Made by a program: the position numbers and the translations under genes
Assembly: GCA_031256395.1 (NCBI GenBank)
Contig: JAIRQQ010000128.1
Span: 1-42,276, forward strand
DNA: 42,276 nucleotides
DNA from: Nitrososphaerota archaeon
GTDB taxonomy: Archaea; Thermoproteota; Bathyarchaeia; Bathyarchaeales; Bathycorpusculaceae
Direction: 5' to 3'
Shown here: piece by piece, positions 25,032-30,237 of the stretch
How the letters are laid out: each line of letters begins with the position of its first letter
Position numbering within the stretch: position 1 is the first letter of the stretch
The notes under the pieces: generated by a model
Seen by the model: only the letters and a program-made list of their open reading frames with translations
The model's database searches: none
Told to the model about the DNA's origin: nothing

Positions 25032-25886
25032 ATGGCTGTAAATGTTTGCATTATGGGTCTAGGTAATATAGGTTTACCAGTTGCTCAACACATCTCAAAA
25101 ATATACAAACAAACCCAAGGATATGACATATCCCAACAAGCCATAAAAATAGCCAAACAAAACGGAATCAACACCACAACCAAACCCCCATATGCAGAAA
25201 TTTATGTAATCACAGTCAACACTTGGTTTCGCAACAACCAACCCGATATGAGCGCCATTGAAGACTGCACAAAAAAAGCAGCCAAACTCAACCCTGATGC
25301 ACTCATATGTTACGAATCAACCCTAACCACAGGCACCGCACGAAAACTCGCCGCAAAATACAACCTAACCAACATAGCCGTCTGCCCCCACAGATGGTGG
25401 AAACAAGAAGAAGACAAACACGGCGTCGTACAAATAAGAGCCCTGGGTTCTCTAAACCAACAAAGCCACAAAAAAGCCCTTGACTTCTACAACACCCTAG
25501 GCATACCCACTCACCCCGTTAACTCCCTAGAAATCGCTGAACTGACCAAACTAGCCGAAAATACCTACTACTATCTCCGCATCGCATACGCTCAAGAACT
25601 AAAATTGCTTTGTGATGAAAACAATCTAAACTATGACGAACTACGCGACGCCGCCAACACAAAATGGAACGTAGATCTCCCCGAAGCACGCAACGGCATA
25701 GGCGGAGAATGCCTCCCAAAAGACATACAATTTCTCATAAACACCTACCCCACAACATCTCTGCTCCAAGCCGCCATAACCGCAGACAAACACTACCAAA
25801 CAAAACAAAAGAATAAAAAAATAACCAAACAAAAAAACACCAAACAAAACACTACCCAAACAGATACCAACACAAATTCCACATAA
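25032..25886 (+). CDS. short nucleotide-sugar dehydrogenase-like protein
   Basis: A 284-residue protein with the NAD-binding Rossmann domain (VCIMGLGNIGLPVA) and the central domain of UDP-glucose/UDP-ManNAc dehydrogenases. It keeps the E-S-T-L/TGTA block, ELTKLAENTYYYLRIAYAQEL with the conserved Lys and Asn, and GGECLPKD with the catalytic Cys (usual form GGHCxPKD). The third, UDP-binding domain of the roughly 430-residue family members is absent. It is replaced by about 35 low-complexity Lys/Gln/Asn/Thr residues. The coding strand is strongly A/C-rich. It may be a distinct short subfamily or a decayed gene; the intact catalytic motifs favour the first. Confidence 0.75.
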   Translation: MAVNVCIMGLGNIGLPVAQHISKIYKQTQGYDISQQAIKIAKQNGINTTTKPPYAEIYVITVNTWFRNNQPDMSAIEDCTKKAAKLNPDALICYESTLTTGTARKLAAKYNLTNIAVCPHRWWKQEEDKHGVVQIRALGSLNQQSHKKALDFYNTLGIPTHPVNSLEIAELTKLAENTYYYLRIAYAQELKLLCDENNLNYDELRDAANTKWNVDLPEARNGIGGECLPKDIQFLINTYPTTSLLQAAITADKHYQTKQKNKKITKQKNTKQNTTQTDTNTNST

Positions 25887-25996: not shown

Positions 25997-26911
25997 TTAT
26001 TCTAGGAATTGGGTTAGGTATTGGGCAATTAGCTCGTAGGCTTCCAAGTCATCAGGTCCTTTTTTGTTACCGTTTTCGTCTATTCCAATCAGATGTTCGC
26101 CCTCGCTTTCAGAAACGGGTTCATTGTACTCTATACGAAACACGCATCGCACAACTGTGCCGTTGCGGGCTTCAAAGGTTAGAAGAGGATATTTTACTCC
26201 GGGTAGAATAAGGTCGTATTTTCCTTCTGTTTTGGGTTCAACTAGAAACGTTTTGGTTTCTGCCAGCGAGAGCAGACTTAGCAACAATGAACCTTGGTAG
26301 GGTTGGAAGCTGAGTTTTGGGTCGTCATGGGTTAGTTTTTCTTTGGCTTCCTCGATTTTGGTGATTAAGTCAGTGTTGTTCCACAAGTCTACTCGGCATC
26401 TTTGCGCCTCTATGATAGCTTGTTCGGTAAAAGAGGTGGTTGCTATGATAAGGGAGCGGTCGCAGTTTTTGGTGGTTTGGGCTTGTTGGGCGGCCAAAAC
26501 TATGATCTCGTTGAGGGCATAGTTGGGGGGGTATTTGCGTGTTAAAACGGTAATCTTTTCAGCACTTTTGCTAACAACTAGATCTGCGCCGTTGTTAACT
26601 ATACAGCTACTTTGTACTTCATAGCCCAAAGTTTCAAAGAGCCACTGGATAAATATTCTAAACTCTTTATCGGAGAGGGCCCCGACCAAATAAGGTTCGG
26701 GTTGGGGTTCGGTGGGTTTGTCGAGTTTTTCCACAAGGGGTTTTATGCGGGGTTTCTCGGAGATTAGATTAGACGTTTTTTTTATGCGGTTTGCTAGTGT
26801 TTCGGCTTTATCTATAGATATCTGCAGTTCATCTGCTAGCTGCTCGATTAGATCTGTGTTTTTTGGTTGTTCAGCTATTTTTTTTAGGGTATTAGTTTTT
26901 TGGTGGCTCAT
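25997..26911 (-). CDS. Mrr-like restriction endonuclease-fold protein
   Basis: A 304-residue protein. A helical N-terminal part (1-75) is followed by an Mrr_cat-type domain: FRIFIQWLFETLGYEVQSS, then NNGADLVV (Asp near 110), then ITVLTRKY, where the usual QxK is TRK (Lys near 126). SLIIATTSFTEQAIIEAQRCRVDLWNNTDL is a clear Mrr-type C-terminal block. The last 100 residues are beta-rich and unrecognised. Mrr proteins cut modified DNA. The gene is last in a three-gene operon with the zinc protein and RapA-like helicase, 6 nt after the former. Loss of the Gln may reduce or alter cleavage. Confidence 0.72.
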   Translation of the reverse strand: MSHQKTNTLKKIAEQPKNTDLIEQLADELQISIDKAETLANRIKKTSNLISEKPRIKPLVEKLDKPTEPQPEPYLVGALSDKEFRIFIQWLFETLGYEVQSSCIVNNGADLVVSKSAEKITVLTRKYPPNYALNEIIVLAAQQAQTTKNCDRSLIIATTSFTEQAIIEAQRCRVDLWNNTDLITKIEEAKEKLTHDDPKLSFQPYQGSLLLSLLSLAETKTFLVEPKTEGKYDLILPGVKYPLLTFEARNGTVVRCVFRIEYNEPVSESEGEHLIGIDENGNKKGPDDLEAYELIAQYLTQFLE

Positions 26912-26917
26912 TTTCTT

Positions 26918-28270
26918 TTAGGGTTCCTTTTTTGCGTGTTGAGGACAGAGTTTTTTTCTGAATTCGTCAGTGTGGGTGAGGTTGAGTTTGGAGAAGGGTT
27001 TGTTGCAGATATCGCAGGCGTCGTAGTGGTGGATGCATATGCTTGTGTTGTCGTGGGTGCATTTGAATTCGAGGAGGCGGCTGTGGCGTTTGCCGCAGAA
27101 TGTGCATATAAAGCCTTTGTCACGCTCAAAATATTCGTCTAGGGTTTCGTCGTGGGTTAGAGTTGTTGTTTTTTTGGAGTAAATTTTTGTTGTGTCTATG
27201 GATTGTCGGATACAATCTTTGCAGACATAGAGACCGTCCTCGGTTGAGTATCCTTCGGTATGGGTTTTTTTGCATAGGGGACAGGTAATGTCGGGATTTT
27301 GGATGCCTATGGTTAGGGTGGATTGGGTGGTTGCTTTGTTGTTGAGGGTGAGTTCGAATTTGATTTTGGTGGTGTTGATTATTAGGAGGTTTTGGAGTTT
27401 TACGGTTATGTTTGTTTGGCAGGATTCTTCTTCGCGTTGCAGCATTGTTTCGTAGGTGGATTGCCATTTTTGGAAGTCGAAATCGTGTTTTTTGGAGATG
27501 ACTTGTTCGCGGCGTTCGCGTTTTAAGCGGCGCTCAAAGCTTTGTAAGCGCATTTTTTTCTCTTTGCCAAGGGGGAGATCAAAGAGGGTGACTTTGTTTT
27601 TGAGATAGATCTGTAGGGTTTGTTCGGCGATTGTTTTTAGTTCGTCGTAGAGTTCGGGTTTTATTTTTGCTTTTGTGTTTTCGGCTTGTATGGTTGGGTT
27701 TTCAAGCACCGCTACTAAATCGAGGGGGTTATTGATGATATGGCCTTCTTCGTTTATCAGAATAGGGAGGGTTTCTTCGCTTTTGGTTCGGAGTTTGTTT
27801 TGAAAGTTTAGGGCGTAGTAGAACTGGAAGAAACGCAGGGATTCTTTTTTAATAATTTTTATCGAGGTGATCTTGCCATTGTTTATCTGGTGAAAACAAG
27901 GTTCGAGTTTGGTGCAAACTTGGGTGTCTTGTAGGGTTTGGGTTTTTGTACAGCTCAAACAGGCAGCGGGGTCATTGAAGTATGATTCTATGAGGGTTTC
28001 TATGGGGCCGTTGTTTGTGAGATTGATGTGGCAGAGGGCGCCGTTGTCTATGGCTTCTTTTAGAAGTTGCTGAAACAGGGGGCTTCCAGGAGCAAGCAAG
28101 GGGATTTTTTTTTCTTTTGCGGTGTGGGGTTGGTAGGTGAATTCTTGGGTTGTACCATCGGGGTAGGCAACGGTTAGAGTGTCGTTTGTTTGGTGAGTTA
28201 TTATACCGCCTTTGTTTTGGATATAGGTTTCAAAGAAGGAGCAGAGATCGGCTTCGGCTTGGGTGCTCAA
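26918..28270 (-). CDS. cysteine-rich zinc-binding protein of the helicase operon
   Basis: A 450-residue protein of no family I can name. The first 330 residues contain two cysteines in SCTK/VCTK context and a basic helical stretch (RLQSFERRLKRERREQ). The C-terminal 120 residues carry several zinc-site pairs: CPLCKKTH with YVCKDC, CTFCGKRH with KCTHD, and CDICNKPF with LCPQH. These resemble treble-clef or RING/LIM-like modules. It overlaps the helicase gene by 4 nt (ATGA) and precedes the Mrr-like gene by 6 nt, so the three products probably act together. It may be a DNA- or protein-recognition subunit. Confidence 0.65.
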   Translation of the reverse strand: MSTQAEADLCSFFETYIQNKGGIITHQTNDTLTVAYPDGTTQEFTYQPHTAKEKKIPLLAPGSPLFQQLLKEAIDNGALCHINLTNNGPIETLIESYFNDPAACLSCTKTQTLQDTQVCTKLEPCFHQINNGKITSIKIIKKESLRFFQFYYALNFQNKLRTKSEETLPILINEEGHIINNPLDLVAVLENPTIQAENTKAKIKPELYDELKTIAEQTLQIYLKNKVTLFDLPLGKEKKMRLQSFERRLKRERREQVISKKHDFDFQKWQSTYETMLQREEESCQTNITVKLQNLLIINTTKIKFELTLNNKATTQSTLTIGIQNPDITCPLCKKTHTEGYSTEDGLYVCKDCIRQSIDTTKIYSKKTTTLTHDETLDEYFERDKGFICTFCGKRHSRLLEFKCTHDNTSICIHHYDACDICNKPFSKLNLTHTDEFRKKLCPQHAKKEP

Positions 28271-30237
28271 TCCAAGACTCCCTGGGTGAATTGTTCGGAT
28301 AGTTCTTGGTTTTCTTTTACTATGTTTAGGTTCTCGGCTAGTTTTTCTAGTTCTTTTTGGATGTCGAGTCGTGAGTTACTGCGCAGTAAAATGTCGCCTA
28401 TGGTTTTTTGTATGTCTTGAGCACCCTCTTTTAAATCGGCTAGCACGGTTTCCATTTTGCCCACGGTCATGGTGAACAGATCGATTTTTTGGTATAGCAC
28501 ATGCAACACATAGTCATCGATGGTGTCTTTGACGGCTAGGTTAAAGATGGTTACATCACGGTCTTGTTTGTAGCGATGAATTCTGCCGATGCGTTGCTCT
28601 ATTTTCATGGGGTTCCAGTGTAGGTCATAGTTAAACAATACACAACAATTTTGCAGGTTGAGGCCCTCTGCGGCGGCGTCAGTTGCGATGAGGTATTTGG
28701 TTTGGCCGCTCTTAAAGCTGGCAATCACTTGATCGCGCTCAGCTTGGTTCATATCGCCCACATAGATGGCGGCGGGGCCAAATTGGTCGTTTAGCATTTC
28801 GTTTATTTTGCGAGCAGTTGTTTTTCTTAGGCAGAAAATGACTGCTTGCTCATTTGGGACTTCTCTTAGAACGTTTTTTAGCAACTCCATTTTGGCACTT
28901 GTTACTTTTTGGGCCATCTCGATTAGTTTGTTGGTGGCGTCGGTTTCCATGGGGAAGCGTTGTTGGCGTTTTTTGAGGGATTCTATGGATGCGTAGGGGG
29001 AGCTTGAGAAGGATTGTTGGAGGGTAATGGCTTGGAAGACCAAGATGGCGTTGCTCTGGGAGGCAGTCATTTTTCTTGAGGGGTTCTCAGCGATTAGGGT
29101 TTCGATGGTTTTGAAGTGGTTGTCGCTGACTTTGCGCAGGTATTGGGTTGCTTCTTCGATGAATTCGCGTTCGTAGTCGTTGGGTTCAAGAGTTCGGGAT
29201 TCTACGCAACGTTTAGTGAAGGGGATACCTGTTTGTTCGCGAAGTGTGCGGCACATGACGTCTTGGAGGGTGTGTTTGAGATAGTTTGCTTCTTGGGGTC
29301 GCACTACTCGGCTTCGGACGTCTTCGGCGAATCGGGAGATAAAGGCGCGTTCGCTATCTAAGAGTCCGGGTTGGATTAGATCAACAATGCTGTAGAGATC
29401 GGTTAGGCGGTTGCATAGCGGGGTTGCGGTTAGCAGAAGCAGGTGGTTTTTGCGCAGATCAGAGAGTGCGTTGCGGCTTTTGCTATGAGTGTTGCGAAAT
29501 GCATGGGCTTCATCGACCATAACTAGGTCCCAGGTTCGGTTGGTGAGTGCGGGATGATTTTTTAGTAACATGTTATGGGAGCATATGAGACGGTTGTTGG
29601 TGGCTAGATTGGCGCGTTTTCCTGCGCCGTTGGCGATGGTAAAGGTTTCGCCGAATTTTTCAGCCATCTCAGCTCTCCACTGCGAGAGCAGGCTTTTGGG
29701 TGCGACAATTAGTACCGAGTTTATTTCTTCTCGCAATAGTAATTCTTTCATGATTAGGCCGGCTTCGATGGTTTTTCCTAAACCCACCTCGTCGGCTAAG
29801 ATGGCGTTTGAGTTCATTTCGTTTATAACTTGCAGTGCGGTGTGCAACTGAAAGTTGTAGGGGATGAGTTTTGTGCGTATGGCATCCACTGAGATGAGGT
29901 GATCGATTTTATCGGTTTGTTTGAGCTGGGTTGCTCTTAGGCTTAGTTGAAAGTTTGTTAGGGATGCATAATTTGTTTTTTGAATTTGTTTTTTTATGTT
30001 GAGGGGATCGGTGTAGGTGATGGTATATTTATGAGATGTTTTTTTGTTGTTTTCGGGGTTGTCGAGTGCGCATATAATTGTTGATTGTTCGGGTTGGGGG
30101 TCTTTGGTTTTTTTTGTTTTTGGTTTGGGGTTGGGGTATAGTAGGTCAACTATTGCATGCGCAGGGTTGATTGTGATTTCGGGTTGGGGGGGTTGGCTGG
30201 TTTGTTTTTTTGGGCTTTGAGACAAGAGTATCGACAT
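28267..30237 (-). CDS. RapA/SNF2-type superfamily 2 helicase
   Basis: A 656-residue protein. After about 115 low-complexity residues comes an SF2 core: LADEVGLGKTIEAGLI (Walker A, 149-156), VAPKSLLSQW, VDEAHAFRN (DEAH, 242-245) and LLLLTATPLCN. The second RecA domain has ATDAAAEGLNLQNC, LHWNPMKIEQRIGRIHR. This combination is typical of RapA/HepA-like translocases and of the SNF2 subunits found in some defence systems. It heads the operon with a TATA-like TTTTTATAG about 20 nt upstream of the ATG, suggesting a nearly leaderless mRNA. The coding strand is A/C-rich. Confidence 0.88.
   Translation of the reverse strand: MSILLSQSPKKQTSQPPQPEITINPAHAIVDLLYPNPKPKTKKTKDPQPEQSTIICALDNPENNKKTSHKYTITYTDPLNIKKQIQKTNYASLTNFQLSLRATQLKQTDKIDHLISVDAIRTKLIPYNFQLHTALQVINEMNSNAILADEVGLGKTIEAGLIMKELLLREEINSVLIVAPKSLLSQWRAEMAEKFGETFTIANGAGKRANLATNNRLICSHNMLLKNHPALTNRTWDLVMVDEAHAFRNTHSKSRNALSDLRKNHLLLLTATPLCNRLTDLYSIVDLIQPGLLDSERAFISRFAEDVRSRVVRPQEANYLKHTLQDVMCRTLREQTGIPFTKRCVESRTLEPNDYEREFIEEATQYLRKVSDNHFKTIETLIAENPSRKMTASQSNAILVFQAITLQQSFSSSPYASIESLKKRQQRFPMETDATNKLIEMAQKVTSAKMELLKNVLREVPNEQAVIFCLRKTTARKINEMLNDQFGPAAIYVGDMNQAERDQVIASFKSGQTKYLIATDAAAEGLNLQNCCVLFNYDLHWNPMKIEQRIGRIHRYKQDRDVTIFNLAVKDTIDDYVLHVLYQKIDLFTMTVGKMETVLADLKEGAQDIQKTIGDILLRSNSRLDIQKELEKLAENLNIVKENQELSEQFTQGVLD

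What the first reader, a model, noticed from the sequence alone, without database searches (positions are those of the whole stretch)
25997..30237. Three-gene operon of RapA/SNF2 helicase, multi-zinc protein and Mrr-like nuclease: candidate new defence or repair system
The sequence shows a 4-nt overlap and a 6-nt gap between the three genes, so they are co-transcribed and probably co-translated. SNF2-type translocases paired with nucleases are hallmarks of several anti-phage systems (for example DISARM), and Mrr domains target modified DNA. The middle protein has at least three zinc-site clusters and no family I can name, and could be the recognition subunit. The Mrr-like site has TRK where QxK is expected. 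I do not know this gene trio as a described system.
Basis: partly seen in the sequence, partly recalled or inferred. Interest (0 to 1): 0.7.

Follow-up and report, generated by a model that had tools for sequence, protein, structure and literature searches.

The report
Three-piece archaeal DNA-motor complex with zinc array
A gut archaeon carries a conserved three-gene unit in which a DNA-pumping motor is split into two proteins and paired with a nuclease-like third protein whose cutting site has decayed; relatives in salt-loving and other archaea keep the same order, and some keep an intact cutting site, which points to an undescribed DNA-defence-type machine.

Summary
The trio is real and at the stated coordinates. 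It occurs in 26 of 32 genomes of the genus (Candidatus Bathycorpusculum) plus one neighbour, always in the order helicase, zinc protein, Mrr-like, with a 4-nt helicase/zinc overlap and a non-ATG start. The zinc protein is not orphan: its predicted fold matches E. coli RapA best in the PDB, and it is homologous to the gene after haloarchaeal split SNF2 helicases (profile P=2e-11). It is the split-off C-terminal half of a RapA/BrxHII-type motor with zinc sites added. The Mrr-like protein is probably not a nuclease here: none of 27 members keeps both catalytic D and K. I found the same ordered trio in two other archaeal lineages: haloarchaeal plasmids (three) and another class of the same phylum (two). 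There the zinc part expands to 17-74 CxxC/H motifs; three of those five have an intact Mrr site. Helicases paired with a CTD lacking the array lack Mrr. Best reading: an undescribed three-subunit, defence-type SNF2 effector whose nuclease has decayed in Bathycorpusculum, where it is inherited vertically in housekeeping surroundings. Anatomy is well supported; function is inferred.

The parts
28267..30237 (-). SNF2/RapA-type helicase core, 656 aa (HEL); ends where RapA/DrmD proteins continue into their C-terminal half
   Evidence: Pfam SNF2-rel_dom 3.7e-35 and Helicase_C 5.7e-27; best PADLOC model DrmD 3.6e-73, matched only over the helicase part; PDB profile hits Snf2/Rad54 and RapA
29770..29793 (-). 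Walker A, DEVGLGKT (aa 149-156)
   Evidence: invariant in 26 relatives and in the haloarchaeal set
29503..29514 (-). Walker B, DEAH (aa 242-245)
   Evidence: invariant
28573..28596 (-). motif VI, QRIGRIHR (aa 548-555)
   Evidence: invariant in the genus apart from I553
28267..28270 (-). 4-nt stop/start overlap (TTGA) coupling HEL to the zinc protein
   Evidence: NTGA in 27/27 loci, TTG or CTG start, never ATG; GTGA in haloarchaeal trios L151 and L152
26918..28270 (-). zinc protein, 450 aa (ZN): split-off RapA-type C-terminal half plus zinc sites
   Evidence: Foldseek top four PDB hits all E. coli RapA, best E 2.9e-5; hhalign to the haloarchaeal CTD family prob 97.3, P 2.3e-11 over 376 columns, shuffles P>=0.097
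27977..28264 (-). ZN aa 3-98: alpha/beta domain at the place of the degenerate REase-like domain described after the RapA/BrxHII helicase core
   Evidence: AlphaFold topology H-E-E-E-H-E; hhalign to single-chain SNF2 tails P 2.8e-4; domain description PMC12839542
27890..27961 (-). N-terminal zinc-like cluster, C104/C107/C119 with H127 and near-invariant C125
   Evidence: conserved in the genus; absent in haloarchaeal homologues
27422..27658 (-). [quoted passage not shown]
   Evidence: AlphaFold secondary structure; described for BrxHII/RapA in PMC12839542
27212..27283 (-). first zinc ribbon, C330-C333...C350-C353
   Evidence: C330 and C333 invariant in Bathycorpusculum and Halobacteria, C353 at least 90%
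26936..27106 (-). C-terminal zinc cluster (C389 to H445), short counterpart of the zinc arrays of other trios
   Evidence: invariant Cys/His; 7 CxxC/H motifs here against 11, 17, 25, 63 and 74 elsewhere
25997..26911 (-). Mrr-like protein, 304 aa (MRR)
   Evidence: Mrr_cat 1.9e-11; AlphaFold pLDDT 86.5, Foldseek to AF1548 and restriction enzymes
26360..26677 (-). Mrr restriction-fold domain, aa 79-184, predicted inactive
   Evidence: 0 of 27 members keep D110 plus K125; R125 in 20; dN/dS 0.30
26000..26329 (-). MRR C-terminal domain (aa 195-304) of unknown fold, the most conserved part of the protein
   Evidence: invariant PLLTF and conserved Tyr/Leu; dN/dS 0.07; no counterpart seen in haloarchaeal or G414/G625 Mrr proteins

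Best explanation
HEL and ZN are the two halves of one RapA/BrxHII-type SNF2 DNA translocase, made as separate but translationally coupled chains. ZN supplies the degenerate REase-like domain, the coiled-coil beta domain and a zinc-finger tail; MRR docks on this motor, probably through the zinc tail. In the ancestral form (two genomes of another class, one haloarchaeal plasmid) the Mrr subunit has an intact active site, so the unit most likely translocates on invading or modified DNA and cuts it, like the helicase-nuclease effectors of BR/BREX-type systems but without methyltransferase or DUF499 ATPase. In Bathycorpusculum the nuclease site has decayed while motor, ZN and the MRR C-terminal domain stay under selection, so here it probably works as a nuclease-dead DNA motor (stripping protein or transcription complexes from target DNA) or hands DNA to another nuclease. 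Shown: gene order, homologies, active-site states, co-inheritance. Inferred: complex formation, DNA as substrate, which form is ancestral, defence role.
For: Motor motifs invariant; ZN matches RapA in the PDB and haloarchaeal split-SNF2 partners; domain order HEL-ZN-MRR mirrors single-chain SNF2-CTD-NOV_C proteins such as L097 in the same family; trio in the same order in L151, L152, L155, L265 and L270; the A2 (MRR) profile scores trio Mrr proteins 15-70 bits against 3-14 for the other Mrr_cat proteins of the own genome; split SNF2 clade 100/100 against single-chain helicases; intact Mrr site in L155, G414, G625; DUF1156 methyltransferase absent in 16 of 17 trio genomes.
Against: Neighbours in Bathycorpusculum are mostly housekeeping genes, not a defence island. 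Presence in 26 of 32 genus genomes, with one gain and few losses, looks more like a stable resident function than a shuttling defence system. The ZN-MRR contact is a guess: the association of zinc array with Mrr rests on three independent contrasts (sign test p=0.25). No experiment.
Confidence: 0.55

Rival explanations
1. A housekeeping transcription or chromatin factor: a split archaeal RapA that clears stalled RNA polymerase or nucleoprotein, with MRR as a structural subunit; defence origin long lost.
For: ZN matches E. coli RapA, an RNAP recycling factor; near-fixed vertical inheritance in the genus and a helicase as constrained as ecfA1 (dN/dS 0.05 against 0.06); housekeeping neighbours; dead nuclease.
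Against: Absent from nearly all other archaea searched and lost at least twice in the genus, once leaving a decayed remnant; relatives lie on plasmids beside DUF1156/DUF499 genes; no RapA-type N-terminal RNAP-binding domain is annotated in the 656-aa helicase.
Confidence: 0.25
2. A DNA-repair unit (nucleotide-excision or break repair) rather than defence.
For: UvrA/B/C genes lie near the trio in some related genomes and a DNA alkylation repair gene is close in the window.
Against: The neighbourhoods are not conserved across the genus; patchy distribution and haloarchaeal plasmid location do not suit core repair.
Confidence: 0.1
3. A subunit set of a larger BR/Hma-type modification-restriction system whose methyltransferase and DUF499 ATPase sit elsewhere in the genome.
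For: Haloarchaeal two-gene versions sit beside DUF1156 and DUF499 genes.
Against: DUF1156 not found in the own genome or 15 of 16 other trio genomes; trios L265 and L270 have no such neighbours evident among their ORFs; DUF499 itself was not searched genome-wide.
Confidence: 0.07

Closest known systems
BR (DUF499-associated) and Hma systems, SNF2 helicase-nuclease effector (PMC12839542; PADLOC HmaA)
   Same: SNF2 core, degenerate REase-like domain, coiled-coil alpha+beta domain, optional extra PD-(D/E)xK domain, in the same order
   Different: Here three separate genes, no methyltransferase or DUF499 ATPase in the neighbourhood, zinc array, Mrr-type third part with a decayed site
RapA (bacterial RNAP recycling factor) and BrxHII (type 3 BREX)
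   Same: Fold of the C-terminal half, helicase family
   Different: Single chain in RapA/BrxHII; split here, with zinc sites, no RapA-type N-terminal RNAP-binding domain found, and the Mrr partner added
DISARM DrmD
   Same: Closest helicase models (3.6e-73)
   Different: No DrmA, DrmB, DrmC or methyltransferase among the neighbouring ORFs
Zorya ZorD (SNF2 plus Mrr-like nuclease)
   Same: Pairs SNF2 with a Mrr-like domain; MRR matches the ZorD nuclease region weakly (6.9e-6)
   Different: Single chain in ZorD, no ZorA/B/C here
Haloarchaeal and cyanobacterial plasmid pairs (SNF2-related protein plus hypothetical protein)
   Same: Same split of motor and C-terminal half
   Different: 0-3 CxxC/H motifs in the C-terminal partner of intact genes and no Mrr neighbour in 12 loci (plus the G687 pair)

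Membership tests
RapA/BrxHII/BR-type SNF2 helicase family | SNF2 core with intact ATPase motifs | tested here: met
RapA/BrxHII/BR-type SNF2 helicase family | C-terminal half: degenerate REase-like domain plus coiled-coil alpha+beta domain | tested here: met
   as a separate chain; description
RapA/BrxHII/BR-type SNF2 helicase family | N-terminal Tudor domain(s) | tested here: inconclusive
   no Pfam hit in the N-terminal 100 aa; not modelled
BR/Hma system | DUF1156 adenine methyltransferase | tested here: not met
   absent in own genome
BR/Hma system | DUF499 ATPase | not tested
   no genome-wide search; none among the flanking genes scanned
DISARM | DrmA, DrmB and DrmC next to DrmD | tested here: not met
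   flanking genes are pyr, fol, ecf and others
Zorya | ZorA/ZorB membrane motor next to ZorD | tested here: not met
   none among window neighbours
Mrr type IV restriction enzyme | D...Q-x-K active site | tested here: not met
   0 of 27 Bathycorpusculum-group members; met in L155, G414, G625

The most novel reading that the evidence does not exclude
A distinct, undescribed archaeal immune or genome-surveillance system: a split SNF2 motor whose second subunit carries an expandable zinc-finger array (7 to 74 CxxC/H motifs) that recruits a Mrr subunit, active in some lineages and converted into a nuclease-dead sensor or motor in Bathycorpusculum.
Probability: 0.45. Interest if true: 0.78.

Novelty: new variant of a known kind. 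Interest (0 to 1): 0.64.

Why it matters
It links the RNA-polymerase recycler RapA, BREX/BR helicases and Mrr nucleases through a three-subunit archaeal form, gives an identity to a protein without a family, and shows a natural series from active to dead nuclease within one conserved trio. The subunits are small and separable, so the role of the RapA-type C-terminal half and of the zinc array can be tested directly.

Tried and rejected
Pfam, NCBIfam and PADLOC scans of the zinc protein gave nothing above cut-off; the weak RING/TRIM21 sequence hit (E 0.009) covers only the first zinc ribbon. Rpb5 hits of the MRR model were set aside: rmsd 14-22 A, and Rpb5 shares the restriction-type fold. Close relatives of ZN in viral contigs, plasmids and phages by single sequence: none. 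Viral contigs with the helicase profile give only generic SNF2 matches, not followed further. Defence-island enrichment: neighbours hit 65 PADLOC models against 30 for 121 control proteins, but the hits are dominated by redundant models and generic families (ABC ATPases, cysteine desulfurases), so no enrichment is claimed. ZN profile against the cyanobacterial partner P0002: not significant. Rfam: none in the region. Bacterial promoter and terminator patterns: not above shuffles and not relevant to archaea.

Full report
Observation. The three genes are on the minus strand: helicase HEL 30237-28267, zinc protein ZN 28270-26918 and Mrr-like MRR 26911-25997. HEL stop and ZN start overlap in TTGA; six bases separate ZN and MRR. 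The window belongs to a Bathyarchaeia genome: the closest named relatives are Candidatus Bathycorpusculum from termite guts, 86% identical in ZN to B. hydrogenotrophicum.

Conservation in the genus. ZN is found in 26 of 32 genomes of the genus and one genome of another genus, and in none of the other Bathyarchaeia searched. In all 26 relatives the three genes follow each other on one strand. HEL/ZN overlap by NTGA in 27 of 27, with TTG (23) or CTG (4) as start and never ATG. In the four closest relatives the unit lies next to pyrD (and, where the contig reaches that far, the ecf cluster); elsewhere the surroundings differ but are shared by subclades. On an EF-2 tree presence needs three changes, compatible with one gain and two losses; G031 retains decayed pieces of HEL and MRR, and in G003 the ZN reading frame is interrupted. 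dN/dS is 0.05, 0.15 and 0.18 for HEL, ZN and MRR against 0.13 for pyrD.

What ZN is. Family libraries give nothing above cut-off. An AlphaFold model (mean pLDDT 76) has as its four best PDB matches four structures of E. coli RapA, E 2.9e-5 to 2.9e-2 over about 320 columns. A tblastn of HEL against plasmids led to haloarchaeal and cyanobacterial SNF2 proteins of about 580 aa that are followed directly by a hypothetical protein. The haloarchaeal partner family is homologous to ZN: hhalign probability 97.3, P 2.3e-11, 376 columns, whereas 20 column-shuffled controls gave P of 0.097 or more. The N-terminal part of ZN also aligns with the region after the helicase core of long single-chain SNF2 proteins (P 2.8e-4); one of these, L097, has SNF2, RapA/DrmD-like tail and NOV_C domains in one chain, the same order as the trio. 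[quoted passage not shown] PMC12839542) fits the ZN secondary structure. So HEL plus ZN is a split RapA/BrxHII-type motor, and ZN has zinc sites added.

What MRR is. It has the Mrr fold, but none of 27 members has both the catalytic Asp (position 110) and Lys (position 125; Arg in 20). The restriction-fold domain evolves loosely (dN/dS 0.30) while the C-terminal domain is tightly kept (0.07). Nuclease activity in this genus is therefore unlikely; this is inference from sequence.

The trio outside the genus. The same order SNF2, CTD-zinc protein, Mrr-like was found on haloarchaeal plasmids of Haloferax lucentense (L151), Halorhabdus tiamatea (L152) and Halocatena salina (L155), and in two genomes of another class of the same phylum, G414 (L265) and G625 (L270). 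G414 carries a cupredoxin-like gene typical of ammonia-oxidising Nitrososphaeria; that name is my inference, as the handles are anonymous. In these the zinc protein has 17 to 74 CxxC/H motifs against 7 in the window. A conserved C-terminal tail after the array is also present in the 578-aa ZN of G090 (42 bits; best of 200 shuffles 5.9), so the window form is probably shortened. The Mrr site is intact in L155, G414 and G625 and degenerate in L151 and L152. The MRR profile prefers these proteins (70, 62, 44, 21 and 15 bits) to the other three Mrr_cat proteins of the window's own genome (14, 7 and 3 bits).

Pairs without Mrr. In 12 haloarchaeal, cyanobacterial and alphaproteobacterial loci and in G687 the split SNF2 has a CTD partner with few or no zinc motifs and no Mrr nearby. 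Mrr and the zinc array thus go together, but only over three independent contrasts on the helicase tree (p 0.25). In that tree the split helicases are set apart from the single-chain outgroup (100/100) and each lineage is one clade; the order among lineages is weakly supported (85/61, 89/81).

Defence or not. The helicase resembles DrmD, BrxH and HmaA; some haloarchaeal pairs lie beside DUF1156 and DUF499 genes, the mark of BR/Hma systems. In Bathycorpusculum the DUF1156 methyltransferase is missing and neighbours are largely housekeeping genes. I therefore favour a defence-type ancestry and a nuclease-dead motor in this genus, with a RapA-like housekeeping role as the main rival.

Literature. 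Searches of the open PMC library for SNF2 with Mrr, zinc and archaea found descriptions of the parts (BR/BREX helicases, YprA/ARMADA, Zorya) but not this trio. Most subscription papers are not in that library.

Limits. E-values are from pairwise comparisons, controlled by shuffles only. The ZN model is moderate, and poor in its zinc tail. Distribution outside Bathyarchaeia was sampled (398 genomes of the phylum, 400 of the class of G414, plasmids), not exhausted; haloarchaeal chromosomes were not searched.

Noticed in passing
L151:4947-8684, L152:4746-8033: Haloarchaeal plasmid proteins of 1245 and 1095 aa with 74 and 63 CxxC/H motifs: very long zinc-finger arrays attached to a RapA-type C-terminal module.
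   Followed up: partly
L097:2336-5686 (G005): A genome of the genus without the trio has a 1116-aa single-chain SNF2-CTD-NOV_C protein, a fused counterpart of the same domain order; close relatives in G168 and G211.
   Followed up: partly
L096:1149-1692 (G031): Decayed remnant of the trio (fragments of HEL and the MRR C-terminus with stops).
   Followed up: yes
L062 (G003:C22): ZN reading frame interrupted while HEL and MRR stay open, either a pseudogene or an assembly error.
   Followed up: no
window 25032-25886: A UDP-glucose/GDP-mannose dehydrogenase-like gene lies just beyond MRR in the window and in G015 but not in G004 or G024, so it is a recent insertion or loss.
   Followed up: no
L002, L003, L004 (own genome C49, C16, C33): Three further Mrr_cat proteins in the same genome, not closely related to MRR.
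   Followed up: partly
L144:4956-11947: E. coli plasmid cluster of a 987-aa SNF2 protein, DNA methyltransferase and DEAD/DEAH helicase, resembling Hma/ARMADA-type defence.
   Followed up: no
window 26000-26329: The MRR C-terminal domain (PLLTF motif) is strongly conserved, has no family and was not seen in the other trios' Mrr proteins.
   Followed up: no
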